From contig OY754468.1 in NCBI GenBank assembly GCA_963575645.1, forward strand, positions 19,988,465-20,052,464: DNA of 64,000 nucleotides, given 5' to 3'. How positions within the stretch are numbered: position 1 is the first letter of the stretch; each line of letters begins with the position of its first letter. Below the pieces are notes generated by a model, which ran no database searches, had not been told where the DNA came from, and worked only from the letters and a program-made list of their open reading frames with translations. The translations under genes and the position numbers were made by a program. Source of the DNA: Xanthostigma xanthostigma (Eukaryota > Arthropoda > Insecta > Raphidioptera > Raphidiidae). Shown here one piece after another: positions 16,077-50,617 of the stretch.

Positions 16077-16946
16077 ATGCCGAAGTTACAACGGAATTCT
16101 AAGAACATCTCACTATCAATGAAAAGTGCTTTTCCTTTCGAAGAAACAGAAGGACCAATCGAGAACAAGCAACTCATTATTCAAGAAGTCGAAGAACAAA
16201 ACGACCAACAAAAGCTAACGGACACTAAGGTTTGTGAAACGTTTTTGGACAACATAATGGCAACTCTAAAACGCAATTCGAGGAGCGATTCACCTTCGAA
16301 GAAAGCATTGTTGCCATCCGAAGAAGCAGGAGAAACTATTCAAGCCAAAGACATCAATTATCTTCCTACCAGTCAAACAGATGTTCAAATGAGTGAACAA
16401 TTCATAGATACCATTATGGCAGATCTAAGACACGCGGATAATAATATAAAAACGACAGTTCCTGATGTCAGCAAGGATAATATCGAAACGGGGAAGAATA
16501 CGGACGTCACGACATTGATTCTATCAGAAGCAACAACTATTTCTACAAGAAAAGGTATTTTATCTCATCGGCTACAAAAAGGTCCCAAGAAGACTGTCAC
16601 ATGGAGAACAAACGACAAATTAGCGAACGTTCAGTTTTTCAAATCATCCGACTGCGCTGATGTCATTAAAAAGCGCACAGACTTTTACATAAAATTTAGA
16701 TCGCCTCCCAAATATCCAATTCGCAGGGTTAAAGCTCTTTCCGTGAGTGATGTGGTTCAAAAAGGTACGACTTTTAAAACAGCTGCATCACAAGATTTTA
16801 CAGAGCTGTCAAAACATTCGTGTGCGGATGGTGATTTGTGGTTTGACATGGATTTGAACGAAGCAGCGAAAGACGGTTCGACGTCATTTTCCGAGAGTGA
16901 AGAATTGGAAATGTGGATGGAAGAAATGAAGAATTTTCAGCACTAA
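16077..16946 (+). CDS. P1: PNUTS-like PP1-docking protein (289 aa)
   Basis: A single open frame starts at ATGCCGAAG, the start shared by all P copies, and ends in FQH. Residues 171-176 are KKTVTW, an RVxF-type docking motif for protein phosphatase 1. It is followed without gaps by RTNDKLANVQFF, which lines up with the region after KTVTW/KSVTW in PNUTS (PPP1R10), a nuclear PP1-targeting subunit. The conserved 'KL' falls at the same offset and an aromatic pair ends the block. The N-terminal TFIIS-like domain and C-terminal zinc finger of PNUTS are absent. Two internal repeats, ETFLDNIMATLKR (54-66) and EQFIDTIMADLRH (107-119), share the core FxDxIMAxL. The acidic tail contains ESEELEMWMEEM. The KR...KKQR basic pair of other copies is altered here. 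Role inferred: a small PP1-binding regulator; alternatively an unrelated protein with a convergent motif. Confidence 0.7.
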   Translation: MPKLQRNSKNISLSMKSAFPFEETEGPIENKQLIIQEVEEQNDQQKLTDTKVCETFLDNIMATLKRNSRSDSPSKKALLPSEEAGETIQAKDINYLPTSQTDVQMSEQFIDTIMADLRHADNNIKTTVPDVSKDNIETGKNTDVTTLILSEATTISTRKGILSHRLQKGPKKTVTWRTNDKLANVQFFKSSDCADVIKKRTDFYIKFRSPPKYPIRRVKALSVSDVVQKGTTFKTAASQDFTELSKHSCADGDLWFDMDLNEAAKDGSTSFSESEELEMWMEEMKNFQH

Positions 16947-17040
16947 TGTACAAAATGGACGACGCAGAAGCAAAAATGTGATATTTGTAAATTGAAGTTA
17001 AAATTATTCAAAGAATATATTATCTATTAATTATTAATGT

Positions 17041-17880
17041 TACATTTTTAGGCGCGAATAGCGTAAGCTAAAGCGCCTATATGTACTCGCTTTGTCTGTG
17101 AATCTGTGAATCTGTATGTCACGCTTTTTTGTGGATTGTGTACAGCTCAAACGCCTTAACCGATTTTAAAAAACTTTTTTTTGTTCGATTCGTCTCCGGG
17201 TAACTTAGATCCTAACGTCGCCCGATTTTTGAATTTTTGCTCCAGAGGGGAGCAATTTAGAAAAAACGAAGTTTTTCGCTTATAACTCGCTCAATTTAAA
17301 TCAGATCGGTTCGAAACATGTCTTAAACGAAAGAGGAGAAAATTTTACATAAATTTCGTACAACAGAATTTGCCCAATCAGTTTTTTTATACACATTTAT
17401 ATAGAAATAAATTCAATCTGATATAACCAATGGCAAACATCTTTCGGTTATCTCTCTCTGTTGCACGGTTTAACATGGCAATTTAAAAATTACGTATGTT
17501 CTGTCTTCAAATAAAATTGGTCGATAATATTATTTATTACAATAATGAAATTAAAAGATAGCATTTGTTCAAAAACGGATGCCGTTTCGAATATTTCTGA
17601 AATGCAACGCCTTCTGGGTTAACAATTTGAATAACTAATTATTAGAACATAATACTTTGCAGATGCAAACGTCACTTTTGACATTTCTTACCATTCCGAC
17701 ACCACGGATGAGCGGATTGAAACCAAATTTTGGGAGGATGTTTGATATGCAAATATGAAGTGGCCTATTGTTTTTTGGGAACATCGGCGCATGCGTAAAA
17801 GAATATATCTCTTATAATGTTGTTTTATATAATAATAATAGTGGAATTATAAAACGGTCGAATAAAAAAAAAAACTTGGT
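17041..17880 (+). mobile_element. Diverged TIR-family repeat next to a second repeat
   Basis: 17041-17290 begins 'ttaggcgcgaatagcgtaag' and reads into 'cgtctccgggtaacttagat', an interspersed repeat not seen elsewhere in the window. 17280-17830 is a diverged copy of the element at 11826-12811 and 48661-49324, sharing 'taactcgctcaatttaaatc', 'aaacgaaagaggagaa' and 'gtcacttttgacatttctta'. No coding capacity is apparent. Confidence 0.5.
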
Positions 17881-18097
17881 GACTGATGATGAGATACTGT
17901 TTTATTAACTTGAATATATTAAAATAATAGTTGTGTGACTAAATTAATAAGTGAGCGACTAAATTACTAATTGAACAACTGAATTACTAAGTGAGCGGTA
18001 AGAATGCCTTCGGTAATTTTAAAGCAGATATCTTCAACCGATTGAGATGAAAATTTGTATACACGTTAAGTTTGGATGACAATGCATGGTTAGCTGT
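17881..18097 (+). repeat. Leader of the satellite array
   Basis: About 17930-18000 has a short imperfect repeat ('gtgagcgactaaattactaa' and variants, about 28-30 bp, three copies). About 18000-18097 ('gcagatatcttcaaccgatt ... ttggatgacaatgcatgg') is a single-copy lead-in to the 120-bp array. It looks like the end of a transposable element within which the array expanded. Confidence 0.45.
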
Positions 18098-19848
18098 GTG
18101 ACGTCACTCTAAATCCAATATGGCGAACTTCTAAATATAGCGGATTTTATTATGCTTTCCTACAATATGGGTATCAAATGAAAGGGCTTGCTGAGAATAA
18201 CTCGAAAAATAAAGTGACGTCACTCTAAATCCAATATGGCGGACTTCTAAAAATGGCGGACTAATTTTATTTACTTTCCTACAATATGGGTAGCAAATGA
18301 AAGAGCTTGCTGTAAATAACTCGAAAATTAAAGTGACGTCACTCTAAATCCAATATGGCGGACTTCTAAAGATGGCGGACTAAGTTTTTTATGCTTTCCT
18401 ACAATATGGGTATCAAATGAAAGGGCTTGCTGAAAATAACTCGAAAAATAAAGTGACATCACTCTAAATCCAATATGGCGGACTTCTAAAGATGGCGGAC
18501 TAAGTTTATTATGCTTTCCTACAATATGGGTATCAAATGAAAGGGCTTGCTGTAAATAACTCGAAAAATAAAGTGACGTCACTCTAAATCCAATATGGCG
18601 GACTTTTAAAGATGGCGGACTAAGTTTATTATGCTTTCCTACAATATGGGTATCAAATGAAAGGGCTTGTTGAGAATAACTCGAAAAATAAAGTGACGTC
18701 ACTCTAAATCCAATATGGCGGACTTCTAAAAATGGCGGACTAATTTTATTTACTTTCCTACAATATGGGTATCAAATGAAAGAGCTTGCTGTAAATAACT
18801 CGAAAAATAAAGTGACGTCACTCTAAATCCAATATGGCGGACTTCTAAAGATGGCGGACTAAGTTTTTTATGCTTTCCTACAATATGGGTATCAAATGAA
18901 AGGGCTTGCTGAAAATAACTCGAAAAATAAAGTGACGTCACTCTAAATCCAATATGGCGGACTTCTAAAGATGGCGGACTAAGTTTATTATGCTTTCCTA
19001 CAATATGGGTATCAAATGAAAGGGCTTACTGTAAATAACTCGAAAAATAAAGTGACGTCACTCTAAATCCAATATGGCGGACTTCTAAAGATAGCGGACT
19101 AATTTTATTATGCTTTCCTACAATATGGGTATCAAATGAAAGGGCTTGCTGAGAATAACTCGAAAAATGAAGTGACGTTACTCTAAATCCAATATGGCGG
19201 ACTTCTAAAAATGGCGGACTAATTTTATTATGCTTTCCTACAATATGGGTATCAAATGAAAGGGCTTGCTGTAAATAACTCGAAAAATAAAGTGACGTCA
19301 CTCTAAATCCAATATGGCGGACTTCTAAAGATAGCGGACTAATTTTATTATGCTTTCCTACAATATGGGTATCAAATGAAAGGGCTTGCTGAGAATAACT
19401 CGAAAAATGAAGTGACGTTACTCTAAATCCAATATGGCGGACTTCTAAAAATGGCGGACTAATTTTATTATGCTTTCCTACAATATGGGTATCAAATGAA
19501 AGGGCTTGCTGTAAATAACTCGAAAAATAAAGTGACGTCACTCTAAATCCAATATGGCGGACTTCTAAAAATGGCGGACTAATATTATTATGCTTTGCTA
19601 CAATATGGGTATCAAATGAATGGGCTTGCTTAAAATAACTCGAAAAATAAAGTGAAGTCACTCAAAATCCAATATGGCGGACTTCTAAAAATGGCTGACT
19701 AATTTTATTATGCTTTCCTACAATATGGGTATCAAATGAAAGAGCCTGCTGTAAATAATTCGAAAAATAAAGTGACGTCACTCCAAATCCAATATGGCGG
19801 ACTTCTAAAGATGGCGGACTAATATTATTATGCTTTCCTACAATATGA
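18098..19848 (+). repeat. 120-bp satellite/minisatellite, about 15 units
   Basis: Units begin at 'gtgacgtcactctaaatcc', at about 18098, 18214, 18333, 18453, 18573, 18693, 18812, 18932, 19052, 19172, 19292, 19412, 19532, 19652 and 19772. The period is 116-120 bp, nearly always 120. Nearest-neighbour types alternate, and a 240-bp higher-order pair recurs around 19052-19532. Because 120 is a multiple of 3, the minus strand stays open and yields long repetitive ORFs with a 40-residue period. These are artefacts of the period, not genes. Most units carry the palindrome TGACGTCA and two ATGGCGGAC motifs. Confidence 0.9.
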
Positions 19849-20628
19849 AACAAGAAGGGGCTAATGTGGAGTTTTTAAAAAAACAATTCCGGGCTGAACG
19901 TTAAATATACACTGATTTTCAAACAAATCACCGGGGTAAAATTTCGCGCCTTGTAATTCTTGAATTACTTGGGCATATACTCCCACTGGTTTTAAATTTT
20001 ACTTGCTTATTGAATTATTTCTTTTATGTATATTTTATTACCTATCCCTACTTTATATATACTTGACAGACGTGTTTTTAATAGTTTGAATTATAAATTA
20101 GTTATTGATTGGTTGATTAAAATATAAAAGTTATCGACCACAAGTAAATTGCTGGAAAACTGAGTTTTTGCCTTATTAAAAATGACCTCATTTGCAATTT
20201 ATTAAACTGTAATAATTGTTGCTGGAAAACGGATGAATAAATAATTCAAATACAAGAAAGAAATTGGGTGTTGATCATTGAGTCATTATTATAATTTTTG
20301 GATTTTAATATAAACACTGAGCGTATGTAATTAAACTTATAGATGAAAAACTTCCTCGTAAAAATCGTCTTAAGCTCAACTCTCTTAAAATTATCTGGAC
20401 AAAACACTATGGTTTAATTGCAAAGATTAAACTTGGATGTTTGTTTGTAGTGTAATTGGGACCAATAAAACATCATAAAATGTGTTATAAAAACCCTAAT
20501 GATTCAAAACTATATACCTGGTGACTGTTAAAGATGGTTGATAAACCGAAAGATTAAATAAAAAAACGTGTGTTTATTACTAATAGATTATTAGCGGTGA
20601 TATTTTAACGAATTAAAGTCTATCAAAA
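19849..20628 (+). other. GR1 upstream flank
   Basis: No gene is present. From about 20020 the sequence matches the region between P and GR in the other units (26640-27225, 28540-29291, 44860-45489, 53330-54086), with shared blocks 'ttgattggttgatt', 'gctggaaaacggatgaataa' and 'acttcctcgtaaaaatcgt'. The conserved spacing may hold the GR promoter, but no TATA/initiator pair is convincing. Confidence 0.5.
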
Positions 20629-21604
20629 ATGATAAGATTCATAAATGATCCTTCAGATTTAATAAGTCTTATTTTAAAACTTTGTAAATGCTTCAATATA
20701 TTTTCGTGATAAAAAATGAAACTAATACATGCACAAAAAGAGGTCTAAATCTATTGCTTTGTGTAAAGTTTCTAACACATGTAATTTTAATTAGCTTTTC
20801 ACAAATAGATTATTACAAGCATGAAACGTGTACCGCGAATTTTATAAACACAGTTCTACAAGCGCTTGCAGTGTTATCGATCTTTTCAGCAGCGTACCAC
20901 ATTTTAAATCAAGAAAAAATGACAACAATTTTCAATAAAATAACTGTGCAATCACTCCGTACATGGTATAACTGGCATATATGATTTATATAACAAACGA
21001 CGTCAAAATATTAGTATTTTGATATTTTATTTGATGGACTTAATTTTGTTTATCAAATCAAGTTTATCAATAGCAGTACATAAAAGAGAACGTGAGAAGT
21101 CTATTATACCTACGTGGAATAAATTTTATTTAAATTTTGACATTTTTATTTGTTTATCAATTCATTTCTTGGTGTGATTTGTATCTATTCTTTCTCAACA
21201 AGTGAAGGCTTTGGTTGAAGATCTTGTTATGCAGAAAAGAAATGAAAAAACCGTCAATGAATATAAATTTGTAACCGCTTATCAAAAAGTATGTTATTTG
21301 GATGCTCAGATTGGCAACATTTTTCAAATATTGTACTCATATTTCGGAATTTATTTTTTATTTTCTATTCTATTAAAATGTATAGTACAAATTCGTTACT
21401 TATACGCTAGTTACAAAACCACGGATCAGCTTGAACGTATTGACGAATGTATTTGGTTCTTATGGCATGTTTTTGTTATGAAAATGTCCGTCACATTCTG
21501 CGTTAAATTCAGAGAGCAGGTAAATATTTACGTTTGTCATTATTACTTCTTTTATGAGTCCACGAGCTACAGGGAAAAAATATTTAAGTAATGATATTTA
21601 ATAT

Positions 21605-21910
21605 AAAGGCCCGTTTCGGATTCGCCCGAATTTGCAGATTGCTACTGTTTTTTCGTCAACTTACGTTGCAAAATTGGTCTTCACGAAAAGCGCTTTTATT
21701 TTAACGCGATAATATATAACCCATGTTCATCCGAAAGGTCCATTCTAAATACTGGCGAAAAAAAATTTGAAATCGGATGAGTAGTTTCGGTGATTACCTC
21801 CTACATCCAAACCTATAAACTTTACCTCTTTTTATTAACCGACTTCAAAAAAGGAGGAGGTTCTATGTTCGACTGTATACTTTTTTTTGTTTTTTTTTAT
21901 GTATGCTCAC
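21605..21910 (+). repeat. Two interspersed repeats in GR1 intron 1
   Basis: 21605-21830 is an RTE-like tail repeat ('ggattcgcccgaatttgcag' to 'cctacatccaaacctataaa'), also present in GR4 intron 1 at 46455-46690, so it predates the duplication of these units. 21836-21910 begins 'aaccgacttcaaaaaaggag', a repeat I associate with lepidopteran genomes. The 108-codon ORF across it shows no domain. Confidence 0.55.
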
Positions 21911-25606: not shown

Positions 25607-26512
25607 ATGCCGAAGTTACAACGAAATTCGAAGAACATTTCATCATCGATGAAAAGGGTTTTTCCTTTCGAAGAAACAGACGGATCAACCGAGAAGAAGC
25701 AACGCATTATTCAAGAAGTCGAAGAACAAAACGACCAACAAAAGCTAACGGACACTAAAGTTAGTGAAACGTTTTTGGATAACATAATGGCAAGTCTAAA
25801 ACGCATTTCGAGGCTCGATTCACCGTCGAAGAAAGGTTCTTTGCCATCCGAAGAAGCAGAAGATACTATTCAAGCCGAAGAAATTGGATGTCTTCCGACC
25901 AAGCAAACGAATTTTCAAATACGTGAACAATTCTTGGATACCATTATGGCAGATCTAAGACACGCGGATAATAGTATCAAAACGACAGTTCCTGATGTCA
26001 GCAAGGATAATATCGAAACGGGAAAGAACACAGACGAAACGACATTGTTTGTATCAGAAGCAGCAACTATTTCTGTTGATAACAACAATGCATCGCATGG
26101 AGAATCTACAAAAAAAGGTATTTTATCTCATCGGCTACGAAAAGGTCCCAAGAAGACTGTCACGTGGAGAACAAACGACAAATTAGCGAACGATCAGTTT
26201 TTCAAATCATCCGACTGCGCTGATGTCATTAAAAAACGCACTGACTTTTATATAAAATTTAGATCGCCTCCCAAATGTCCAATTCGCAGGGTTAAAGCTC
26301 TATCCGTGAGTGATGTGATTCAAAAAGGTACGACTTTTAAAAAAGCTGCATCACGAGATTTTACAGAGCTGTCAAATGAACATTCGTGTGCGGATGGTGA
26401 TTTGTGGTTTGATATGAATTTGAACGAAGCAGCGAAAAACGGTTCGACGTCAATTTCCGAGAGTGAAGAATTGGTAATGTGGATGGAAGAAATGAAAAAT
26501 TTTCAGCATTAA
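25607..26512 (+). CDS. P2: PNUTS-like PP1-docking protein (301 aa)
   Basis: This is the longest fully open copy. The start at 25607 (ATGCCGAAG) is chosen because all copies share it; the frame is open a little further upstream but without an ATG that other copies keep. Layout: a possible bipartite nuclear signal (KR at 16-17, KKQR at 30-33), repeats SETFLDNIMASLKR (53-66) and EQFLDTIMADLRH (107-119), a Ser/Asp/Asn-rich linker, GILSHRLRKGPKKTVTW (171-187) with the PP1 RVxF motif TVTW at 184-187, then DKLANDQFF, RSPPKCPIRRVKALSVSDV, and an acidic tail. The PNUTS resemblance is confined to the docking region. GILSHRLRKG differs from P1 only by RLQ, while the linker differs by a small in-frame length change (DNNNASHGES absent in P1). 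No intron is evident. Function is inferred, expression unknown. Confidence 0.7.
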   Translation: MPKLQRNSKNISSSMKRVFPFEETDGSTEKKQRIIQEVEEQNDQQKLTDTKVSETFLDNIMASLKRISRLDSPSKKGSLPSEEAEDTIQAEEIGCLPTKQTNFQIREQFLDTIMADLRHADNSIKTTVPDVSKDNIETGKNTDETTLFVSEAATISVDNNNASHGESTKKGILSHRLRKGPKKTVTWRTNDKLANDQFFKSSDCADVIKKRTDFYIKFRSPPKCPIRRVKALSVSDVIQKGTTFKKAASRDFTELSNEHSCADGDLWFDMNLNEAAKNGSTSISESEELVMWMEEMKNFQH

Positions 26513-27225
26513 TGTACAAAATGGACGACGCAGAAGCAAAAATGTAAAATTATAAGTTAAAATTATTGTAAGAAAATGTTATTTATTAATTATTATTGTT
26601 CTAATTTATTTGTATATATTTTATTAAATTTTAGAGATTTATTGAATTATTTCTTTTATTCATATTTTACTACATATCCCTGATTTGTATAGGTATACTT
26701 AACAGACGTGTTTTTCATAGTCTGAATAATAAAGTAGTTATTGATCGCTTGATTTTGCTTTATTAAAAAAAGGTACCTTATATGCTATTTATTAAACTGT
26801 GATAGTTGTTACTGGAAAACGGGTGAATAAATAGTTCATATAAAAGAAGAAGTTTTGATTTTAGTTTCTGATCGAATAATGTCTATAAAAATTAATACAA
26901 AAACTGAGCGTTTGTAATTAAACCTATAGATGAAAAACTTCCTCGTAAAAGTCGTTTTAAGCTCATCTTTAGAAAAAACTCTCTAAATATTATCTACGAC
27001 AAAATACTTTGGTTAATTATAAACATTAATTTTGGGTTTTAGTTTCTAGTTGAATTTAGTCTATAAAAATGATAAATTTTGTTATAAAAACCTTAATGAT
27101 TTGAAATTATATGCCTGGTGACTAAAGATGGTTGATAAACGGAAATATTAAATAGAAAAACGTGTGCTTATTACTAAGCGATTATGATTAGTGGTGAAAT
27201 TTTAACGAATTAAAGTTTAACAAAA
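26513..27225 (+). other. Spacer between P2 and GR2
   Basis: This is unit flank shared with other copies: post-P tail 'atggacgacgcagaagcaaa', then AT-rich sequence, then 'gctggaaaacgggtgaataa'-type and 'acttcctcgtaaaagtcgt' blocks. No gene and no separate insertion are seen. Confidence 0.5.
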
Positions 27226-27630
27226 ATGATAAGATTCAATAAGTCTTATTTTAAAATTTTGTAAATGCTGCAATATTTTCGTGATAAAAAATGGAAATAA
27301 TAGATTCACAAAAACAGGTCTAAATCTATTGATTTGTGTAAAGTTTCTAATACATGTAATTTTAATAAGCTTTTCACAAATAGATTGTTACAAGCATGAA
27401 ACATGTACGGTGAATTTTATAAACACAGTTCTGCAAGCGCTTACAGCAACGTACCACATTTTAAATCAAGAAAAAATGATAAAGATTCTAGATAAAATAA
27501 CTGAATGCAATCACTCATTGTGTGATATAACTGGCATATATATTTCATATAACAAACGACAACAAAATATTAATATTTTGATATTTTATTTGATGGACGT
27601 AATTTTGTTTATCAAATCAAGTTTATTAAT
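27226..27630 (+). pseudogene. GR2: truncated gustatory receptor exon 1, fused to P3
   Basis: It matches GR exon 1 from ATGATAAGATTC (27226). About 20 bp (the bases for INDPLD) are missing near the start, so the frame from that ATG fails after a few codons. The downstream part is open (27281 onward: GLNLLICVKFLIHVILISF...). GR similarity stops at 'atcaaatcaagtttattaat' (27630), about 45% into exon 1, where P sequence begins. Exons 2 and 3 are missing. This is the product of a deletion or unequal exchange between a GR and a P copy. Confidence 0.75.
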
Positions 27631-28303
27631 TATTGAAACGTTTTTGGATACCATAATGGCAAGTCTAAAACGCAATTCGAGGAGCGAGTCACCATCGACC
27701 AAACAAAGGGATTTTCAAATACGTAAACAATTCTTGGATACCATTATGGCTGGTCTAAGATACGCGGATGATAGTATCAAAACGACAGTTCCTGATGTCA
27801 GCAAGGATGATATCGCAATGGGGAAAAATACAGATGAAATGACTTTGTTTGGATCAGAAGAAGCTACGATTTCTGTTGATAGCAACAATGCATCGCATGG
27901 AGAATCTACAAAAAAAGGTATTTTATCTCATTGGCTACGAAAATGTCCCCAAAAGACTGTCACATAGACAACAAATGATAAATTAGCGAACGTCCAGTTT
28001 TTCAAATCGACAGACTACGCTAATGTCATTAAAAAGCACAGTGATTTTTATATAAAATTTAGATCACCTCCCAAATGTCCGGTTCGCAGGGTTAAAGCTC
28101 TATCCGTGAGTGATGTGGTTCAAAAAGCGATAACTTTTAAAAAAGCAGCAACACAAGATTTTACAAAGCTGTCAAATTCATGTGCGGATGGTGATTTATG
28201 GTTTGACATGAATTTGAACGAAGTAGCGAAGGACGGTACGACATTTTCCGAAAGTGAAGAGTTGGAAATGTGGCTGGAAGAAATGAAAAATTTTCAGCTC
28301 TAA
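27631..28303 (+). pseudogene. P3: 5'-truncated PNUTS-like copy in GR/P chimera
   Basis: It picks up P sequence at ETFLDTIMASLKR (promoter and first ~52 codons lost). It lacks the segment between the two FLDTIM repeats (SPSTKQRDFQIRK joins the flanks of that gap), and carries TAG in place of the codon for W of TVTW (27964-27966). The rest, to FQL at 28303, is open in the same frame. The 228-codon ORF spanning GR2 and P3 (27281-27967) is the accidental fusion of a receptor N-terminus with a P middle. Most likely dead, though a transcript cannot be excluded. Confidence 0.75.
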
Positions 28304-29291
28304 TGTACGGATTATACGACGCGGAAGTAGAAATGCAATGTACAAAATGGCCAACGCAGAAGCAAAAATGTGATATTTGTAAATTGAAATTATTGTAATA
28401 ATGTGTTATTTATTAATTATTATTGTTACATTTGCACATATTTTATTACATTTTATATATTTCTTGAATTATTATAAGTTAAAATTATTGTAATAATATA
28501 ATATTTATTAATAATTATTGTTATATTTTATTTTTTTATTTATTTATTGTATTTATATCTTTTTTTACATATAGGTACCTACTTTGTGTATACTTGTTTA
28601 CCATAGTTTATATGATACGAAGTGTAAAGGAATAATAAATTAATTATTGATTGGTTGATTGACATACAAAAGTATTCGACCACAGGTAAATTGCCGGAAT
28701 ACTGTTTTACCCTATTAAAAATGAGACTTCATATGCGTGTGGTTCATAATTAAATAAATATTAGTGGAAGTGATATAACTCTTTATTAAACATGTAATAT
28801 TTGTTGCTGGAAAACGGGTGAATAAATAATCCAAATAGGTACAGCTTAAAAAAAACTATTCATATACAAGAAATAGATTGGGTATTGATCATTGAGTGAT
28901 TATTATAATTTTGGATTTTAGTTTCTGATCGAAACTTGTCTATAAAAATTGATAAAAAAACTGATAGTTTTTAATTAAACCTATAGATGAGAAATTTCCT
29001 ATAGTAAAAATCGTATAAAACTTTTTTAAAATATTTTGGGTTAATGACAAAGATTAATTTTGGATTTTAGTTTGTAGTTGAATTGGGACCTATTAAAAAT
29101 ATTATTTGTTTTAAAAACCTTAATGATTTAAAATTATATAGGGCAATGCGAATCTTGCTAGTGAATATTCAAGACGGTTGATAAATCGAAAGTTTAAATA
29201 ATATTATTTAAAAATAAATACGATATTAAACGTTTATTAGTTAGAGATTATGATTAGTGGTCATATTTGAACGGTTTAAATTTTATAAAAA
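28304..29291 (+). other. Spacer between P3 and GR3
   Basis: Unit flank, closely similar to 53258-54086 (for example 'ggtgaataaataatccaaat' and 'gggcaatgcgaatcttgcta'), which pairs GR3 with GR5 as nearest relatives. AT-rich, no gene. Confidence 0.5.
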
Positions 29292-30247
29292 ATGATTAGA
29301 TTCATAAATGATCCTTTAGACTCAATAAGTCTTATTTTAAAATTTTGTAAATGCTTCAATATTTTCGTGATAAGAAATGAAAATAATATATTCACAAAAA
29401 CAGGTCCAAGTCTGTTGGTTTGTGTAAAGTTTCTAATACATGTAATTTTAATAAGCTTTTCACAAATAGATTGTTACAAGCATGAAACGTGTACCGCGAA
29501 TTTTATAAACACAGTTTTACAAGCGCTTGCAGTGTTATCAATCTTTTCAGCTGCGTACCACATTTTAAATCAAGAAAAAATGATAACAATTCTAGATAAA
29601 ATAACTAAATGCAATCACTCATTGCATGTTATAACTGGCATATATGTTTCATATAACAAACGGCAACAAAATATTAATATTTTGATATTTTATTTGATGG
29701 AAGTAATTTTGTTTGTCAAATCAAGTTTATTAATCGCAGTACACAAAGGAGAAAGGGTGATGTCAATGATCTATTTTACGTGGATTAAAAATTTTTTAAA
29801 TTTTGACATTTTTGTCTTATTATCAATTCATTTATTTATGGGGTTTGTATCAATTCTTTCTCAACAAGTGAAGGCTCTGAATGAATATCTTGTTCGGCAG
29901 AAGAGAAATGAAAAAACCGTCAATGAATATAAATTTGTAGCCGCTTATCAAAAAGTATGCTATTTGCATGCCCAGATTGGCGACATTTTTCAAATATTAA
30001 ACTCATATTTTGGATTTTATTTTTTAATTCTCTATTCCATTAATGTGTTGTATAGCACAAATTCGTTGTACGTTAGTTACAAAACCACGGATCAGCTTGA
30101 ACGTATTGATGAAATGATTTGGTTTTTAAAGCATATTATTGTTACGAAAATGTCCGTCACATCCTGCGTTAAACTCAAAGAGCAGGTAAATATTTATATT
30201 TTTCATTATTACTTCTTTTTTAAGTTCTCTAAAAATCTGATGATATT

Positions 30248-31124
30248 TGTTGGAGATACGAAGTAGCCACTGCTATTATAAACAGTATAAGTAATGTAAC
30301 TATGGTAGTAGTCTAGAAGTGACCACAACAAAGTGAAAACGCGAAATTCTGCTCATAGATCTGTATCATTATAAAGTGACATATATTCATATAATAAATA
30401 TCTGATACGTACCTTAGAGTTATTCATTGCGTTATTTAACTTGCTAACAGGTTATGGGCCCAGAATAGATTCAGGTAACGTCGAGAAAAAATCGTGAAAA
30501 AATCACGAGAAAAATTGGGCACCTTTGATCGCGTAGTGTGTGTGGTATAAACGGGAAAACCGTTTTGTGTGAGACTCAGTCAGCGAAAATTGTATTTGCG
30601 AGATAAAATTTAAAAAACTCGTGTCGCAGTGCCAAACCCTGCCGACAATATAGTGTATTTGCTTTTATAGGCAGTGTGGCTCAACTGTTTGAACTTAACT
30701 TTGTTTTTGGACAAAATAAAAAAATTACCCCTTAATACACCCCTTAAAAAAACAGTTTTTTACTTAATTTCAATATCAATTCAGCATCTGTAACAAATTA
30801 TATACACCCTTCAGTATGTAAATCTACATTAGTAAACTTGTGTTTTCATCAAATTTGTAAGTCCGGTCCTGTCGAGCCGATTTTTTTAAAATTTTAGTAG
30901 CACATTTTAATAATTACTAAAGAGTTAAATTTCAAATTTGAAACGATTCTGAGAATTTTTTTGGTATTTTTGGGCCCAAAAAAAATTTTCAACCCCTAAA
31001 ACCCACCCTTAAAGTGGCCCGATCGGACCCATTTTAAATAGGCTTCGTGCGGTGATGGATTTCAACATGTGGTCCAAATTTCGTTAAAATCAATTAACTC
31101 CTTCGAAAGTTATAGCCCGCACAC

Positions 31125-40076: not shown

Positions 40077-40088
40077 ATAAAAGTGAAA

Positions 40089-41584: not shown

Positions 41585-41594
41585 TTTTTTCAAG

Positions 41595-44500
41595 ATGCCG
41601 AAGTTACAACGCATTTCGAAGAACATCTCACCATCGATGAAAAGGGCTTTTCCTTTCGAAGAAACAGAAGGACCAACCAAGAAGAAGCAACGCATTATTA
41701 AAAAAATCGAAGAACAAAACGACCAACAAAACCTAACTGACACTAAGGTTAGTGAATCGTTCTTGGATACCATAATGACAAGTCTAAAACGCAATTCGAG
41801 GAGCGATTCACCGTCGAAGAAATATTCTTTGCCATCCGAAGAAGCAGAAGATACTATTCAAGCCGAAGAAATTAGATTTCTTCCGACCAAGCAAACGGAT
41901 TTTCAAATACGTGAACAATTCTTGGATACCATTATAGCAGGTCTAAGATACGCGGATGATAGTATCGAAACAACAGTTCCTGATGTCAGCAAGGATGATA
42001 TCGCAACGGGGAAGAATACAGACGAAACGACTTTATTTGGATCAGAAGAAGCAACGATTTCTGTTGATAACAACAATGCATCTACAAAAAAAGATATTTT
42101 ATGCCATTAATATTAATAATAATATTTATTTTACCACATTGACAAAAGAGTATATGGCATGTCCATAAAAAAATTAGAGTTACATATTAAAAAATTCATT
42201 AATGCTATAAAATTCTCTGCTTACTAAATCATTCTTTAACTTACTTTTCATGGTTTGCAATGGCGAAGATTTGATTTCAACTGACAGACGATTGTAAAGT
42301 TTGATACAGTTATAGAGCACACCTTTTTCAATGGTAGTCAAGGAATGATCTGGCAAGCGAAAATCATTGTTTCCCCTGGTGTTATACTTATGTAATAATT
42401 GATGGTTACTGAAAAGGCTAAAATGTACTTTTACGAAAACAATACATTCATAGATGTATTCAGAAGGCAGTGTCATGAGTCCAAGAGCCTTAAAGATTCC
42501 TCTGCATGATTGTCTGGCGCTTAATTTGGCCATAATACGTATGCATTTCTTTTGTCCTTTGAAGATTAACTCTGTATTAACAGCACCCCAAAAAATAACC
42601 CATACTTCATTCTAGAGTAAAAGTTACCGAAGTACATTGTTTTTATGGTATTGTAATTGCAGAATGTACTCATCCTGCGTATTGCGTATAGACAACTTCC
42701 AAGTTGTTTTGCTAATACATTAATATGCTTGCACCACTTGATATGCTGATCCACAAAAATCCCCAGAAATTTTGCATCAGTCGAAAAATTAGCTTTAATA
42801 TTATTAAGATATAAACAATCAGGTGTTTTTTTGTTACTTTGCTTAGTTTTAAATAGTAGAAGATTAGTTTTGTTTGTATTAAGAACTAATTTATTACTGG
42901 CAAACCAGTTATTTATTTTAGCAAACATTTCTACTGTTTTGTCAGACACTTCGGCTACATTTGAGCCAGTAACTAGGAGAGTTGTGTCATCAGCATAACA
43001 AATGATGCATGCATCAGCAACACAACTTGGAAGGTCGTTTATATAGAAATTAAAGAGTAAAGGACCCAAAACACTGCCTTGAGGTACACCGATATTTAAT
43101 ATTCTGAAGTCAGATTTGGAATGACCATCATTTTCAGTATTTATTTTTACATATTGAGAGCGGTTTTTAAGATAGGATTTCAGCCAATTCCAAGCTTCTC
43201 CTCTTATACCATAGCTGTGCAATTTATCCATTAAAATTAAATGGTCGACGCAGTCGAAGGCTTTCGACAAGTCAAGAAAGACCCCCAGAGTATTTTTTTG
43301 GCCATCTAGTGCTTGTAAAATCTTCTCTAGAAATTCAAAAATTGCAGTATTGGTGGACTGGTACTTTTTAAAGCCATGCTGGTTCTTAGATAGAATATTC
43401 ATTTTATTTGCAAAACAGGTAATTCTGTTATGCATTACATATTGATAAATTTTTGAAAAATAGGAGAGTAGACTAATAGGTCTGTAATTCGACAATAATG
43501 TAGAGTCTCCACTTTTAAAAACAGGGGTAACCACCGCTAATTTCAGTGCATTAGGGAAGATTCCTTGCTCCAGTGATGCATTTATGGCATTAACTAGAGG
43601 ATTTAAAATATAGACGTAAACCGATTTTATTAATGTGCTCGTTATCTCGTCGTAGCCTGACGATTTTTTATTTTTAGTTTTTTTAATAATACTTGCAATC
43701 TCCTCCTCAAGGCAAGGGGAAATAAATATTGATTTTTCATTGCACGGTATACTTCGAAATGGGACAGCCTGAGTAGAGCTTGTCAAGTTTTTAGCAACAT
43801 TAACAAAAAAATTGTTAAAAATGTTGGCAGCTTCCCGTGCCGACTTTGCAGTTTTGTCACCATTCATAATTCCCGCCAAGCTGTTATTTTTTATTTTACT
43901 CTTGTTTCCGTTAATTATTTTCCACATTGTTTTAGCTTTATTATCACTGTTTGATATTTCGTTTTCAAAGAAAGTTGTTTTGGCTGAATGTAGTTTATTG
44001 ACGTATTCGCATTTTAATTTATTATAGTAGTTTTTGAACACTGGAAATTTCAAGGAGAGATCTAACCATCCTTGCAGGTTATGTCTGAGTATTTTTATTT
44101 CAGGTGTAATCCATTTACATTTATGTGTCGTTGGTACTGCTTGCTTGACTTTGATTATGGGGAAACAGTTGATAAAATGTTTCATGAAAAATATTAAATT
44201 TCTCATCAGCGTTTACGGTTTCGTACACCGCAGACCAATTTTCATCCTACGAAAAGGTCCCCAAAAGACTGTCACATGGAGAACAAATGATAAATTAGCG
44301 AACGTCCAGTTTTTCAAATCGACAGACTGCGCTGATGTCATTAAAAAGCGCACTGACTTTTATATAAAATTTAGATCACCTCCCAAATGTCCGATTCGCA
44401 GGGTTAAAGCTCTTTCCGTGAGTGATGTGGTTCAAAAAGCTATGACTTTTAAAAAAGCAGCAGCACAAGATTTTACAAAGCTGTCAAATTCACGTGCGGA

Positions 44501-44615: not shown

Positions 44616-45489
44616 TGTACGGATTATACGACGCGGAAGTAGAAATGCAGTGTACAAAATGGACAACGCAGAAGCAAAAATGTGATATTTGTAAATTGAA
44701 ATTATTGTAAGTTATTTATTAATTATTATTGTAATACCTATTTGTACATATTTTATTACATTTTATATATTCATTGAATTATTATAAGTTAAAATTATTG
44801 TAAGAATATATTATTTATTAATTATTATTGTTATATTTTATTTAATTTTACATATTTATTAAATTATTTCTTTTATAATTTTATATTTTATTACATATCC
44901 CTACTTTGTATATACTTGACAGACGTGTTTTTCATAGGCTGAATAATATATTAGTTATTGATTGGTTGATTGAAAATATATAAAAGTATTCAACCACAAG
45001 TAAATTGCCGGAAAACTGAGTTTTTGCCTTATTCAAAATGACCTCATATGCTATTTATTAAACTGTAATAGTTGTTGCTGGAAAACGGGTGAATAAATGA
45101 TTCAAATACAAGAAAGAAATTGGGTGTTGATCATTGAGTCATTATTATAATTTTTGATTTTAATACAAAAACTGAGCGTTTGTAATTAAACTTATAGATG
45201 AAAAACTTCCTCGTAAAAATCGTCTTAAGCTCAACTCTACAAAAACTCTCTTAAAATTAAAAACACTTTGGGTTAATTACAAAGATTAAACTTGGATTTT
45301 TGTTTGTAGTTTAATTGGGACCAATAAAACATCATAAAATGTGTTATAAAAACCTTAATGATTCGAAATTATATACCTGGTGACTATTGAAAATGGTTAA
45401 TAAACCGAAAGATTAAATAAAAAAACGTGTGTTATTACTAAAAGATTATGATTAGCGGTGATATTTTAACGAATTAAAGTCTATCAAAA
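44616..45489 (+). other. Spacer between P4 and GR4
   Basis: Unit flank as before GR1 (very similar to 19990-20628). AT-rich; no gene or extra insertion recognised. Confidence 0.5.
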
Positions 45490-46454
45490 ATGATAAGATT
45501 CATAAATGATCCTTTAGATTCAATAAGTCTTATTTTAAAATTTTGTAAATGCTTCAATATTTTCGTGATAAGAAATGAAAATAATACATTCACAAAAACA
45601 GGTCTAAATCTATTGATTTGCGTTAAGTTTCTAATACATGTAATTTTAATAAGCTTTTCACAAATAGACTGTTACAAGCATGAAACGTGTACCGCGAATT
45701 TTATAAACACAGTTTTACAAGTGCTTGCAGTGTTATCAATCTTTTCAGCACCGTACCACATTTTAAATCAAGAAAAAATGTCAACAATTCTCGATAAAAT
45801 AACACAATGCAATCACTCAATACATGGTATAACTGGCATATATGTTTTATATAACAAACGACAACAAAATATTAATATTTTGATATTTTATTTGATGGAT
45901 TTAATTTTGCGTATCAAATCAAGTTTATTAAGAGCAGTATATAAAAGAGAACGTTTGATGTCAATGATCTATTATACGTGGATTAATAAATTTTGAAATT
46001 TCTGTTTGTTTATCAATTCATTTATTTGTGGGTTTTGTAACGATTCTTTCTCAACAAGTGAAGGCTCTGAATGAATATCTTGTTCGGCAGAAAAGAAATG
46101 AAAAAACCGTCAATGAATATAAATTTGTAACAGCTTATCAAAAAGTATGTTATTTGCACGCCGAGATTGGCCACATTTTTCAAATATTAAACTCTTATTT
46201 CGGAATTTATTTTTTAATTCTATATTCTATTCAAATGTTGTGTAGTACAAATTCGTTATACGCTAGTTACAAAACCACGGATCAGCTTGAACGTATTGAC
46301 GAATGTATTTGGTTCTTATGGCATGTTTTTGTTATGAAAATGTCCGTCACATCTTGCGTTAAATTGAGAGAGCAGGTAAATATTTACTTTCTTCATTATT
46401 ACTTCTTCTTTAAGTCCACTAGCTATCGAAAAAAAAAATAGCCAATAATATTTA

Positions 46455-46690
46455 ATATAAAGGCCCAGTTCGGTTTCGCCCGAATTTGTAGATTGCCACC
46501 GTTTTTTATCTACGTTGCAAAACTGGCCTCCACGAAAAGCGCTTCTATTTTAACGCGATAAAACCTATGTTCATCCAAAAGGTCCGTTCTAAATATGGGT
46601 GAAAACATGTTTGAATTTGGATGAGTAGTTTCGGAGATTATCTCCTACATCCAAACTTATACACTTTACTTGTTTATAATATTTATAGTC
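46455..46690 (+). repeat. RTE-like tail repeat in GR4 intron 1
   Basis: Same repeat and position as 21605-21830 in GR1 ('cggtttcgcccgaatttgta' to 'cctacatccaaacttataca'). It is absent from the equivalent intron of GR3 and GR5, which fits GR1/GR4 and GR3/GR5 as two subgroups. Confidence 0.55.
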
Positions 46691-46973
46691 CGGTCAAAAT
46701 AGACAAAAAAATAGTGGTAGTGGTGAATAAATTTTGTAGCAGATGAAGGATTGGTGGGGACTTTTGATATTTTATTTGTAATACCAATTTTCAGCTTTAT
46801 GCGAAGCATAGTAAATTGAAATGTTCATTTTGACTGAACTATTTATAATAAAACACTCAAAAACGACCATGAAACGAAACAATAATCACTGCTTTTTTCG
46901 TCCTAAAAAGGACAAAATCAGAATAGTTTATATACTTGTGCGACAATTCGTTATAGACCTCTATATATTAGTA

Positions 46974-47290
46974 AAAGACTGCGCACACTTATCAAGCATG
47001 AATCAACACAAACCTGTAACCTGCGTGATGTCGCGCACTAGACCCGCACGGACCAACACAAACCAGCAACTTTTAGTGCAGATTAACGAATGGCACATCA
47101 CTAGATCGGTCCAAAAGGGCTAGAGACAAATTGCAGGCGACTGACCGACTGTTGCTGCTGCTTACAGGCGTTCGCCTAATATGTACTACTCCGTTAATTA
47201 ACATGACGTGTACATTCACGAACAGGCTTTTCTGCTCCGTGCTGTGCTGGTCGTATTGGCCCATGCTTGATAAGTATGCGTGCTCTTTAA
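46974..47290. mobile_element. Non-autonomous TIR element, fullest intronic copy
   Basis: Ends AAAAGACTGCGCACACTTATC and, read inward from the right, AAAGAGCACGCATACTTATC are inverted repeats of about 27 bp with a few mismatches, both leading into AAGCATG. The interior is shared with the elements near 15450-15640 and 40880-41060 in the opposite orientation. ORFs on either strand (63 and 61 codons) are not conserved between copies. Confidence 0.6.
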
Positions 47291-48298
47291 GTCAAACATA
47301 CATATCAAATTTTTAGCGTAATTTTTAATTTGATTTAATTGTGTTTCAGCTATTAAGAACTGGTCGTCTTCTCTATAATGAAGAAATAAGCCTTGCGTTT
47401 ATGAACGAAGTACTAAGTTTTAATATATATTTGCCACAATCTTTAAAATATTAATTTCCGTAGTTATCGTGCTAGAGTCTGAAGCGCAAGTTTTTCTTTC
47501 GCTATATGTACTTTGATATCTTAGCTGCAAGCGATCAGAGCTTTGAACTCTGCGCAAAAACAACTGATTTTGATAACAATTATTATTTCCAAGTTTAAAA
47601 CGGCCAATCGCTTGGCAGTTGACAACATCGAAGAAAAACGCCTAAATATTATATTGCTCTGTACCTATACGGAGTTATAATTTTATGAGAACTCTTAGCA
47701 AATTGATTAAAAATAATCCTCTAAAAATTCTCGCCTAGGTTTAAGTAATTATCCGACCATGCATCGTGCAAAAAAAAAATAAAAAAATTTTTTTTTTTTA
47801 TAGCAAAACAATCTTGGAACCAAAATATTTTGTCAACAAGTGAGTTTTATGTGTTGCGGAATATTTACCATGGATTATTCTATAGTGACAGTGGTAAGAC
47901 ATATTTTTTATATAAATGGAAAAGAGTAGCATTTGTAGATAAACTACGAAAAAACATTCAATCCAAATTCCAGTAGTCGGGCTTGCAGCGATATCGTTGT
48001 TTAAATGGCGTTTTCATGGATCATTCAATCGTTCCATACAAACTTTTCATACTGAAAATAAAATGGTTCATCTTGTGGAAAGTGTATTTAGAAATTTTTC
48101 TTGCTTTGTCTTTTATGACAATTATATTTAATTATCATTGTCGTAACCAACAGCTATAAACTCAAAAGTTTATAGTAGATATAACGAGTTTATTTATTAT
48201 TTTAGATGCTTTCATTTGCATTCACCAATGCGGCCATACTTATCCAATTCTCGCAATGGGGAAGACCATTCATCGAAGGGGAAGAATTTTTATACTAA

Positions 48299-48660
48299 TT
48301 GAGCATCAACTAAAAAACACAATTGTATAATCGCAGTCACCGCCCATAAAAAACTATTTTTACCAAACTTAATTGTTCCAAAAATTACGGTAAAAATTTG
48401 GAGGGAATATTTACTACGGAATGCTGGTTCGACAAGCTTAAAAATACTTGCGTTATTTTTTCCTTTACCGTTATTTTTGTAAACATGTAATGGACATCCA
48501 AGTGTGCTTAATATAAAAATAATAATTCGTTGTCGTTATTTTAAGATTAACAAGAAGAGAATATTATTAATAAAGAAATGAGTAATTTTTTTTTACAACC
48601 AACTTATTATTTAGTGAATCAAATCGAAATTTAAGCGGTAAGTCTGAAGGGTGGATCAAT
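48299..48660 (+). other. Spacer after GR4
   Basis: Shortened post-GR flank: the 24560-24720 part is followed directly by sequence like 25080-25280, so several hundred bases were lost here relative to GR1. No gene. Confidence 0.45.
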
Positions 48661-49324
48661 TTTTTTGACGTGATAACGTCTTATAAATTGATGAATCACC
48701 AATATTATAAATTGATAAAACACCGGCTGCATGTTCGAAAAAGTGTAACGTAACATTCCTAATGTTCCGCCTGACCCTGTGCGTGCTTTTTGCTAATTTC
48801 TCGCTCAATTTAAATCAGATCGGTTTGAAACCAGTCTTAAACGAAAGAGGAGAACATTTTACATAGATTTCGTATAACAGAATTTGCCTAAACAGTTTTT
48901 TTATACAAATTTATATAGAAAAATATTTTATACAAATTTATATAGAAAAATAGCTGTATAAATGCAATGTTGTGTAATGCATGGCGCGACGCGGTCGGTT
49001 GTCTTTGTTTGCCGTACATGGAAATTAGAAGCAAACGTATGTCTTGTCTTAACATGAAAACAGCTGCATTTCTAATGTTTAATTCAATTTTTTGACATTA
49101 GTATATTGTGAAATGCAAAGCCTGCTAAGTTAAGTATTGGAATAACTAATTATTATTAGAACATATAATACTTTGTAAATTGCAAACGTCACTTTTGACA
49201 TTTCTTATCATTCCGACACCAAGGATAAGCGGATTGAAACCAAATTTTGGGAGGTTTAGGTTATGTATTACGGAATACGTTATCACGTAAAACTATCGTC
49301 CGTAAACCGACTTTACAGACAACC
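48661..49324 (+). mobile_element. TIR element of the 'ACGTGATAACGT' family, shortened copy
   Basis: Begins TTTTTTGACGTGATAACGTC and ends GTTATCACGTAAAACTATCG plus the subterminal 'tccgtaaaccgactttacag', the same two ends as 11826-12811 in opposite orientation. Compared with that copy, a few hundred internal bases before 'tttaggttatgtattacgga' are missing. It interrupts the unit flank upstream of P5. Confidence 0.6.
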
Positions 49325-49678
49325 ATTTTTTTTTTTATTTTAATTTTACCTATTTGTTCTCATTTCCATCTTTATGCAACAAATGAAAACACCAAACGAA
49401 TGTCTGCTTCGATTAAATAGAATAGAAATACGTAGATCTATTTCATGAAGCAGTTACTCGTTTCGTGCTTTCTTATAAAATGGAAAGATTTGGGTTCGTG
49501 TCTCGTCGGTGGCAGTGTTTGAAAATAAATATTTCTTATATAGCGTTGCAACAATGGGTGCTTCTTAAGAATTGTAGCAAACTATAGCGGTCATTAAAAC
49601 ATGAGTGATTATTGTTCCAAATCTTAGAACCAAATTACTATAACAAAAAATTATTATCTACGTGATATCAAGTAAGGG
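49325..49678 (+). other. Upstream flank of P5
   Basis: Contains 'cacatttgttctcatttcc'-type text, 'ttatgcaacaaatgaaaac' and 'gggttcgtgtctcgtcggtg', which recur at 57120-57300 and 60330-60420 where the next unit begins. No gene. Confidence 0.5.
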
Positions 49679-49710
49679 TATATAGAACACTAAATGACTG
49701 TGGATAGTCA
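49679..49710 (+). promoter_or_regulatory. Core promoter of P5
   Basis: TATATAGA at 49679 is 31 bp before the A (49710) of TCACAGTT. The initiator dyad ACTGTGGATAGTCACAGT is intact. Five-prime leader about 50 nt. Confidence 0.6.
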
Positions 49711-49759
49711 CAGTTCTTAGTTAGAAAGTCGCATTGAACGACACAAATTAGTTTTCAAG

Positions 49760-50617
49760 ATGCCGAAGTTACAAAGAAATTCTAAGAACATCTCATCATC
49801 GATGAAAAGGGCTTTTCCTTTCGAAGAAACAGACGGACCAACCGAGAAGAAGCAACGCATTATTCAAGAAGTCGATGGACAAAACGACCAACCAAAGCTA
49901 ATGGTTAGTGAAACGTTTTTGGATACCATAATGGCAAGTCTAAAACGCAATTCGAGGAGTGATTCACCATCGAAGAAAGGTTCTTTGCCATCCGAAGAAG
50001 CAGAAGATACTATTCAAGCTGAAGAAATTAGATATCTTCCGACCAAGCAAACGGATTTTCCAATACGTGAACAATTCTTGGGTATCATTATGACAGGTCT
50101 AAGATACGCGGATGATAGTATCAAAACGACAGTTCCTGATGTCAGCAAGAATGATATCGCAACGGGGAAGAATATAGACGAAACGACTTTGTTTGAATCA
50201 GAAGAAGCAACGATTTCTATTGATAACAACAATGCATTTCATGTAAAATCTACAAAAAAAGGTATTTTATCTCATTGGCTACGAAAAGGTCCCCAAAAGA
50301 CTGTCACATGGACAACAAATGATAAATTAGCGAACGTCCAGTTTCTCACATCGACAGACTGCGCTAATGTCATTAAAAAGCACAGTGATTTTTATAAAAA
50401 ATTTAGATCACCTCCCAAATGCCCGATTCGCAGGGTTAAAGCTCTATCCGTGAGTGATGTGGTTCAAAAAGCTTTGACTTTTAAAAAAGCAGCAACACAA
50501 AATTTTACAAAGCTGTCAAATTCATGTGCGGATGGTGATTTATGGTTTGACATGAATTTGCACGAAAGTGAAGAATTGGAAATGTGGATGGAAGAAATGA
50601 AAGATTTTCAGCATTAA
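49760..50617 (+). CDS. P5: PNUTS-like PP1-docking protein (285 aa)
   Basis: Fully open from ATGCCGAAG. Features in order: possible bipartite nuclear signal (KR 16-17, KKQR 30-33), ETFLDTIMASLKR (51-63), EQFLGIIMTGLRY (105-117, repeat core altered), linker, GILSHWLRKGPQKTVTW (168-184) with TVTW at 181-184, then TTNDKLANVQFL, RSPPKCPIRRVKALSVSDV, and a shortened acidic tail ending KDFQH. Relative to P2, TDTK is missing near residue 48 and the AAKDGSTSFS stretch of the tail is gone, both in frame. All changes preserve the frame, as expected if the protein is still under some constraint. The LTR element downstream begins 148 bp after the stop codon. Confidence 0.7.
   Translation: MPKLQRNSKNISSSMKRAFPFEETDGPTEKKQRIIQEVDGQNDQPKLMVSETFLDTIMASLKRNSRSDSPSKKGSLPSEEAEDTIQAEEIRYLPTKQTDFPIREQFLGIIMTGLRYADDSIKTTVPDVSKNDIATGKNIDETTLFESEEATISIDNNNAFHVKSTKKGILSHWLRKGPQKTVTWTTNDKLANVQFLTSTDCANVIKKHSDFYKKFRSPPKCPIRRVKALSVSDVVQKALTFKKAATQNFTKLSNSCADGDLWFDMNLHESEELEMWMEEMKDFQH

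What the first reader, a model, noticed from the sequence alone, without database searches (positions are those of the whole stretch)
16077..50617. A co-amplified family of small PNUTS-like PP1-docking proteins
Five copies (P1 16077, P2 25607, P3 27631, P4 41595, P5 49760) encode a protein whose only recognisable part is KTVTW followed by KL and an aromatic pair at the spacing of the PNUTS PP1-binding region. The rest of PNUTS (TFIIS-like domain, zinc finger) is absent. Three copies are fully open and their length differences (TDTK, DNNNASHGES, part of the acidic tail) are in frame. What is seen: the motif and the open frames. Known: RVxF motifs dock PP1, and PNUTS uses KTVTW or KSVTW. Inferred: an intronless, tandemly amplified PP1 regulator, possibly a retrocopy derivative of PNUTS or a convergent motif.
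Basis: partly seen in the sequence, partly recalled or inferred. Interest (0 to 1): 0.85.

Follow-up and report, generated by a model that had tools for sequence, protein, structure and literature searches.

The report
Chimeric PNUTS-derived PP1-docking genes, snakefly
A snakefly chromosome carries a small tandem family of single-frame genes that look like a fusion of an unrelated, much-amplified insect gene with the phosphatase-docking piece of the nuclear regulator PNUTS; three copies are still readable, but it is not known whether they are expressed or bind the phosphatase.

Summary
Of five tandem copies, P1, P2 and P5 are open (289, 301, 285 aa), P3 is truncated with a stop at the W of KTVTW, and P4 is split by a reverse-transcriptase element; a sixth, decayed copy lies 2 Mb away. 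Assembly statistics identify the snakefly Xanthostigma xanthostigma (chromosome 5, an autosome), not a lepidopteran. The PNUTS link goes beyond the motif: 47 residues match the PP1-binding segment of the snakefly's own PNUTS (0 of 20,000 shuffles as good, also with KTVTW masked). It is not a plain PNUTS retrocopy: the N-terminal half, and probably a TATA-type box, belong to an orphan family with at least 32 copies on the same chromosome. Best reading: a chimera of orphan module, PNUTS docking segment and a tail of unknown origin, encoding a PP1 competitor or re-targeting subunit. Past purifying selection is seen (dN/dS about 0.48), but neighbouring receptor copies, 4 of 5 broken, give similar values, so present function is likely, not shown. 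Expression and PP1 binding are untested.

The parts
16077..16946 (+). P1, open, 289 aa
25607..26512 (+). P2, open, 301 aa
27635..28303 (+). P3, truncated pseudogene; TAG at the W of KTVTW; read in frame after a gustatory-receptor-like fragment (ORF 27281-27967)
41595..42110 (+). P4 N-terminal part
42566..44206 (-). reverse-transcriptase (RVT_1) ORF of the element that splits P4
44242..44615 (+). P4 C-terminal part with KTVTW (44265-44279)
49760..50617 (+). P5, open, 285 aa
16548..16688 (+). PNUTS-like PP1-docking segment of P1 (aa 158-204; KTVTW 16590-16604)
26111..26251 (+). PNUTS-like segment of P2 (aa 169-215; KTVTW 26153-26167)
50255..50395 (+). PNUTS-like segment of P5 (aa 166-212; KTVTW 50297-50311)
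16077..16526 (+). P1 N-terminal half: two units related to the orphan 'MPRL' family (HMM hits aa 1-69 and 73-150)
15991..16003 (+). TATA-like box GGGTCTATAAAAG, P1
25521..25533 (+). TATA-like box, P2
41508..41520 (+). TATA-like box, P4
49676..49688 (+). TATA-like box, P5

Best explanation
P is a chimeric gene of a snakefly, a single open frame without visible introns. A member of a chromosome-5 orphan family (here called MPRL, after its first residues) kept its N-terminal module, probably duplicated it, and gained the central PP1-docking segment of PNUTS from the same chromosome, plus a C-terminal tail of unknown origin. The fusion was later amplified in tandem together with a chemosensory-receptor gene. 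The protein most likely wraps the PNUTS segment around the PP1 catalytic subunit (V and W of KTVTW in the RVxF pockets, the downstream hydrophobics in the next groove) without PNUTS's TFIIS-like domain and zinc finger; it would therefore act as a competitor of PNUTS for PP1, or take PP1 to wherever the MPRL module resides. Shown: copies, open frames, both homologies, past constraint. Inferred: origin by fusion, PP1 binding, competition or re-targeting, nuclear location.
For: Genome-wide protein search with P1 (34 matches at E<=1): 7 pieces of the five P copies, 3 of the decayed copy, 23 MPRL members and one other, the PNUTS exon (C5:37.499 Mb, E 0.009). In the reverse search PNUTS finds itself, then P2 (0.002), P5 (0.034), P1 (0.043), then one hit at 0.7. 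That exon is PNUTS by its match to PPP1R10 chain 4moy_B (E 2.9e-5) and its CCCH finger. 47-residue core: score 94-95 against a maximum of 58 in 20,000 shuffles per copy; with KTVTW masked 69-70 against 52. N-terminal half: MPRL profile gives 41-54 bits for P1, P2, P5 and P4N against at most 7.9 bits in 900 shuffled P sequences. The box GGGTNTATW lies 84-87 nt upstream of 4 of 4 P starts examined and 117-126 nt upstream of 27 of 31 MPRL starts; 0.009 expected per 200 nt in the window. dN/dS P1-P2 0.48 (bootstrap 0.29-0.83), P1-P5 0.49, P2-P5 0.47; chance that the three frames stay free of stops without selection 0.0025 or 6e-5, by branch length used. V/W changes typically abolish PP1 binding, as shown for human PNUTS, and R420A does not affect association (passages of PMC10731240); W726A loses PP1 in fly PNUTS (passages of PMC3814315).
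Against: No transcript or binding data. The five receptor copies in the same array, 4 of 5 broken, show dN/dS 0.30-0.77, so a low ratio reflects past rather than present constraint. Younger pairs P5-P4 and P5-P3 have ratios 0.80 and 0.69 with intervals that include 1. 3 of 6 copies are dead. The stop simulation was applied to the three copies that happened to be open, which overstates it. The PP1 core is not the most conserved part (pooled pN/pS: N-half 0.69, core 0.42, C-tail 0.31). P2 has D at the first PhiPhi place, P5 has L at the Phe place, and the Arg place is lost in P1, P2 and P5. KTVTW is more like human PNUTS than snakefly PNUTS (KSVKW). Against the PDB sequences, whole P1 has only chance-level hits (PES4 0.61, then a PP1-targeting peptide 1.1). 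The second MPRL unit is at noise level in P2 and P5 (6.8 and 7.5 bits), and the linker before the core alone does not match MPRL (67, 390, 296 of 1000 shuffles as good). The 300 bases upstream of P and MPRL do not align overall.
Confidence: 0.66

Rival explanations
1. Relic family: the chimera once worked, but the remaining open copies are drifting and have no present role.
For: 3 of 6 copies are dead; P5-P4 and P5-P3 ratios 0.80 and 0.69; broken neighbouring receptor copies have similar ratios.
Against: P1 and P2 carry no stop or frameshift although the receptor copies next to them are broken or truncated; length differences are whole codons; C-tail and PP1 core ratios are low.
Confidence: 0.2
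2. Convergence: an orphan protein evolved an RVxF-type PP1 motif by itself; the PNUTS likeness is chance plus functional convergence.
For: RVxF motifs are short and found in most PP1 regulators (PMC10731240); KTVTW is closer to human than to snakefly PNUTS; the R420 place is missing.
Against: Shared residues flank the motif on both sides in register (KGIL, KGPKK, W[RK]T[ND], L, Q[FY]F); 0 of 20,000 shuffles reach the score with the motif masked; PNUTS is the only match outside P and MPRL at E<=1, and P copies are PNUTS's best matches after itself.
Confidence: 0.12
3. PNUTS retrocopy derivative: a processed PNUTS mRNA inserted and lost its ends.
For: No introns seen; but the PNUTS piece also lies inside one 519-aa open region of the PNUTS gene, so absence of introns there is no evidence of an mRNA intermediate.
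Against: Sequence before the core matches MPRL; the tail does not match PNUTS downstream of the core (343-885 of 1000 shuffles as good) and only marginally the low-complexity part upstream of it (8-13 of 1000); promoter-like box shared with MPRL. A retro-event supplying only the middle piece is not excluded.
Confidence: 0.08

Closest known systems
PNUTS (PPP1R10), PP1 nuclear targeting subunit
   Same: 47-residue central PP1-docking segment: RVxF, some of the following hydrophobic contacts, GIL and KGPKK before the motif as in the snakefly PNUTS
   Different: No TFIIS-like domain or zinc finger found in P1, P2, P5; Arg place lost; N-terminal half from another family; small, single-frame, multi-copy
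MPRL orphan family (this genome; at least 32 copies on C5, one on C9)
   Same: First ~70 residues, a weaker second unit, single open frame, GGGT-TATA box upstream
   Different: MPRL lacks the PNUTS segment; P lacks the conserved MPRL C-terminus (FWKNEDLPRLLRKFKRLNLR and like)
PPP1R2 (inhibitor-2) retro-derived family of mammals (PMC3840573; abstract and outline seen)
   Same: Extra incomplete copies of a PP1 regulator, some possibly functional
   Different: Those are retroposons of one gene; P is a fusion with a different family and amplified in tandem
PP1-specific phosphatase-targeting peptide (PDB 8sw5)
   Same: P2 segment aligns over KGIL...KTVTW...KL (E 0.057 with the 71-aa segment)
   Different: By its PDB name a targeting peptide made for PP1, not a natural gene (origin recalled)

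Membership tests
PNUTS / PPP1R10 | RVxF core [K/R]-X(0-1)-[V/I/L]-X-[F/W] (definition from PMC10731240) | tested here: met
   KTVTW in P1, P2, P4, P5 and the C5:18.04 Mb copy; P3 has a stop at W
PNUTS / PPP1R10 | PhiPhi and Phe contacts after the motif | tested here: inconclusive
   P1: V-Q then F-F, as I-Q, Y-F in snakefly PNUTS; P2 has D-Q; P5 has F-L; binding not measured
PNUTS / PPP1R10 | Arg motif (R420 of human PNUTS) | tested here: not met
   No Arg at that place in P1, P2, P5; R420A does not affect association in human cells (PMC10731240)
PNUTS / PPP1R10 | TFIIS-like N-terminal domain and CCCH zinc finger | tested here: not met
   Pfam scan at E<=1: P1 none; P2 and P5 one unrelated sub-cut-off hit each; snakefly PNUTS exon has the finger
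PNUTS / PPP1R10 | binds PP1 | not testable with these tools
   no assay
MPRL orphan family | N-terminal module | tested here: met
   HMM hits aa 1-69 in P1 (32.2 bits), P2 (42.1), P4 (41.9), aa 1-66 in P5 (32.5)
MPRL orphan family | conserved C-terminal half | tested here: not met
   C-tail of P against MPRL C half: 408-900 of 1000 shuffles as good
Retrocopy of PNUTS | PNUTS sequence continuing on both sides of the core | tested here: not met
   flanks do not continue PNUTS beyond marginal low-complexity likeness
Retrocopy of PNUTS | poly(A) remnant and target-site duplication | not tested
   not examined

The most novel reading that the evidence does not exclude
A lineage-specific PP1 regulator born by fusing the PNUTS docking segment to an amplified, TATA-driven orphan family, working as a natural decoy that takes PP1 away from PNUTS (and so from RNA polymerase II and chromosomes) in a restricted tissue such as the germ line; its expansion beside a relative of 32 or more copies on one autosome would fit an intragenomic conflict.
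Probability: 0.2. Interest if true: 0.7.

Novelty: new variant of a known kind. Interest (0 to 1): 0.48.

Why it matters
PP1 gets its specificity from many docking proteins, and how new ones arise is rarely caught in sequence. Here the likely donor (PNUTS), the recipient family (MPRL), open copies and dead copies all sit on one chromosome, so the birth of a PP1 regulator by fusion could be dated and tested; one dead copy is broken exactly at the docking tryptophan.

Tried and rejected
Lepidopteran origin: rejected; contig sizes, 28 scaffolds and a 17,745-base mitochondrial contig match the snakefly assembly of PMC11871431. TIM (a lepidopteran Z marker, recalled) hit C3 and C12 and said nothing about C5.

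DNA similarity of the 300 bases upstream of P and MPRL (4 MPRL x 4 P): 4 of 300 shuffles as good in the best of 16 comparisons, 16-276 of 300 in the other 15. Only the short box is shared; I chose that box after looking at both sets, and copies within each set are not independent.

C-tail origin: not PNUTS downstream, not MPRL; marginal against the low-complexity part of PNUTS upstream (8-13 of 1000), not claimed. The long PNUTS alignments (0 of 2000 shuffles as good; masked 1, 0, 0 of 2000) run through low-complexity sequence, so I rely on the 47-residue core.

dN/dS as proof of present function: given up after the receptor control. Structure model of P2 from a 3-sequence alignment: mean pLDDT 35.9, no residue at 70 or above; it fits disorder, but with so thin an alignment proves nothing, so no fold search was made.

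MPRL: no Pfam family at E<=1 and no PDB match at E<=10, one member given to each.

Literature: no such gene in the titles and abstract starts listed for PNUTS with RVxF terms (20 of 22 listed), with duplication and retrogene terms (20 of 6,862), for RVxF with chimeric gene (10 of 104), PNUTS with new-gene terms (10 of 19,664), snakefly gene families (7 of 7) and the species name (5 of 5). Searches saw only the top of long lists, so this is a weak negative.
Full report
What is there. The window is G000:C5:19988465-20052464. Contig lengths (C1 84.21, C2 69.27, C5 53.13, C13 18.36 Mb; mitochondrial contig 17,745 bases; 28 contigs, 623.3 Mb) equal those of the male snakefly Xanthostigma xanthostigma, irXanXant1.1, in PMC11871431 (parts 1 and 2 of 4 of the text read). 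C5 is chromosome 5, an autosome; the X is the 18.36-Mb scaffold.

Copies. A protein search of the whole genome with P1 gave 34 matches at E<=1: seven pieces of the five P copies in the window, three pieces of a decayed copy at C5:18.038 Mb (two TAA in one piece, frame changes between pieces), 23 members of the MPRL family, and PNUTS. P1, P2 and P5 are open; P3 is truncated and has TAG at the tryptophan of KTVTW; P4 is split by an RVT_1 element. So 3 of 6 copies are open.

The array. P is co-amplified with a chemosensory-receptor-like gene (7tm_7, E 2e-4, 21.2 bits, below the curated cut-off of 26.6) and with further unnamed sequence. Five receptor copies lie in the array; one (29292-30263) is open, the other four carry frameshifts, a stop, or truncation.

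PNUTS relation. Outside P and MPRL, the only match of P1 in the genome at E<=1 is the PNUTS exon at C5:37.499 Mb (E 0.009); reciprocally, PNUTS finds P2, P5 and P1 next after itself (0.002, 0.034, 0.043). The exon's identity rests on PPP1R10 chain 4moy_B (E 2.9e-5) and a CCCH finger. The shared core reads, in P2, KKGILSHRLRKGPKKTVTWRTNDKLANDQFFK and, in PNUTS, KRGILVYHKRKGPKKSVKWKTDSELKEIQYFE. Local scores are 94, 95 and 95 (P1, P2, P5) against maxima of 58, 55 and 57 in 20,000 shuffles each; with the five motif residues masked, 69, 70, 70 against 48, 52, 51. Against the PDB sequences the evidence is weak: the P2 segment finds only a PP1-targeting peptide, 8sw5, at E 0.057, and whole P1 finds PES4 at 0.61 and 8sw5 at 1.1.

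Chimeric build. A profile of 31 MPRL proteins (30 cut out plus the one at 0.48 Mb) hits P4N, P1, P2 and P5 with 54.4, 53.7, 49.6 and 40.8 bits; the best of 900 shuffled P sequences has 7.9. The first unit covers aa 1-69 (1-66 in P5); a second, weaker unit covers about aa 73-150 (19.7 bits in P1, 12.1 in P4, but 6.8 and 7.5, noise level, in P2 and P5). The two units of P also resemble each other (0, 0 and 2 of 1000 shuffles as good for P1, P2, P5). The linker just before the core does not match the MPRL C half when tested alone (67, 390, 296 of 1000). The PNUTS core follows at aa 158-204 in P1. MPRL has at least 32 members on C5 (31 open; one partial with a stop) and one on C9, with median dN/dS 0.34 over 462 of 465 pairs. 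A box GGGTNTATW stands upstream of 4 of 4 P starts examined (P1, P2, P4, P5) and 27 of 31 MPRL starts; the whole window has 6 such sites on both strands, those four included. Hence the gene looks like an MPRL-type gene, perhaps promoter included, that gained a PNUTS piece; a plain retrocopy of PNUTS would not bring the N-terminal half. The direction and mechanism of the fusion are inferred.

Docking. In human PNUTS the contacts are RVxF-PhiPhi-Phe-Arg, with TVTW 398-401 and R420; V and F/W changes typically abolish binding, R420A does not affect association (passages of PMC10731240); PNUTS 394-433 binds PP1 with KD 9.3 nM (passage of PMC4999541); PP1 does not co-precipitate with W726A fly PNUTS (passages of PMC3814315). 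P1 keeps RVxF, a V-Q where the snakefly PNUTS has I-Q, and the following F-F; P2 has D-Q-F-F, P5 V-Q-F-L; none of the three keeps the Arg. So P1 is predicted to bind PP1, P2 and P5 perhaps less tightly. The GIL before the motif resembles the SILK motif (consensus recalled) but lacks the K/R, in P and in snakefly PNUTS alike.

Selection. dN/dS (NG86, own script, 10 pairs): P1-P2 0.48 (0.29-0.83), P1-P5 0.49 (0.32-0.77), P2-P5 0.47 (0.30-0.78), P1-P4 0.46, P1-P3 0.37, P2-P4 0.41, P2-P3 0.34, P4-P3 0.39 (0.20-0.84), but P5-P4 0.80 (0.46-1.56) and P5-P3 0.69 (0.35-1.52). Pooled pN/pS of P1, P2, P5: N-half 0.69, core 0.42, tail 0.31, so the tail of unknown origin is the most constrained part. Without selection the three frames would all stay free of stops with probability 0.0025 (all-site branch lengths) or 6e-5 (dS branch lengths), an overstatement, as the open copies were chosen for being open. 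Control: the ten receptor pairs, 4 of 5 copies broken, give 0.30-0.77. So constraint acted during most of the history; that it acts now is suggested by P1 and P2 being intact where the neighbouring receptor copies are broken, not proved.

How it may work. PNUTS joins PP1 with WDR82 and Tox4 in a nuclear complex that acts on transcription, and exchange to PP1-binding-dead PNUTS in the fly ovarian germ line leaves nurse-cell chromosomes compacted (passages of PMC12278311). A protein with the docking piece and without the TFIIS-like domain and zinc finger would compete with PNUTS for PP1 or carry PP1 elsewhere. The family STPPase_N, which covers PP1 and relatives (scope recalled), has three exon matches over its cut-off in this genome (67, 65 and 31 bits); which of them are PP1 was not tested. 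Nuclear location is a guess from basic clusters in the N-terminal half.

Verdict. A real, small, chimeric gene family; a new combination of known and orphan parts; function probable, unproved.

Noticed in passing
G000:C5 10.08-10.58 Mb, 14.55-14.67 Mb, 0.48 Mb; C9:5.05 Mb (L029-L058, L020, L098): Orphan single-frame MPRL family, at least 32 members on one autosome, often in opposite-strand pairs 2-3 kb apart, with a GGGT-TATA box in 27 of 31 examined; no Pfam or PDB match for the member tested.
   Followed up: partly
window 19987-21837, 26549-27630, 28457-30247, 44767-46681, 53257-55041: Five 7tm_7-like receptor copies co-amplified with P; one open (29292-30263), nearest relative outside the array on C4 at 60% identity.
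   Followed up: partly
window 27281-27967: Receptor fragment joined in frame to the truncated P3, a chimeric ORF at the junction of two repeat units.
   Followed up: no
window 18098-19847: 120-base minisatellite, 14.6 copies, 94% matches; two minus-strand ORFs of 124 and 211 aa run through parts of it.
   Followed up: no
window 31308-33667: Copia-type LTR retrotransposon gag and integrase domains.
   Followed up: no
starts of C5, C8, C10, C13 (L097, L087, L088, L090): Scaffold starts made of a T-rich satellite (TTTCCCTTTTTTGGGCCGT-like), no TTAGG in the 60-120 bases read; C11 start is different.
   Followed up: no
G000:C3:19.10 Mb and C12:13.36 Mb: Two loci that match triosephosphate isomerase.
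   Followed up: no
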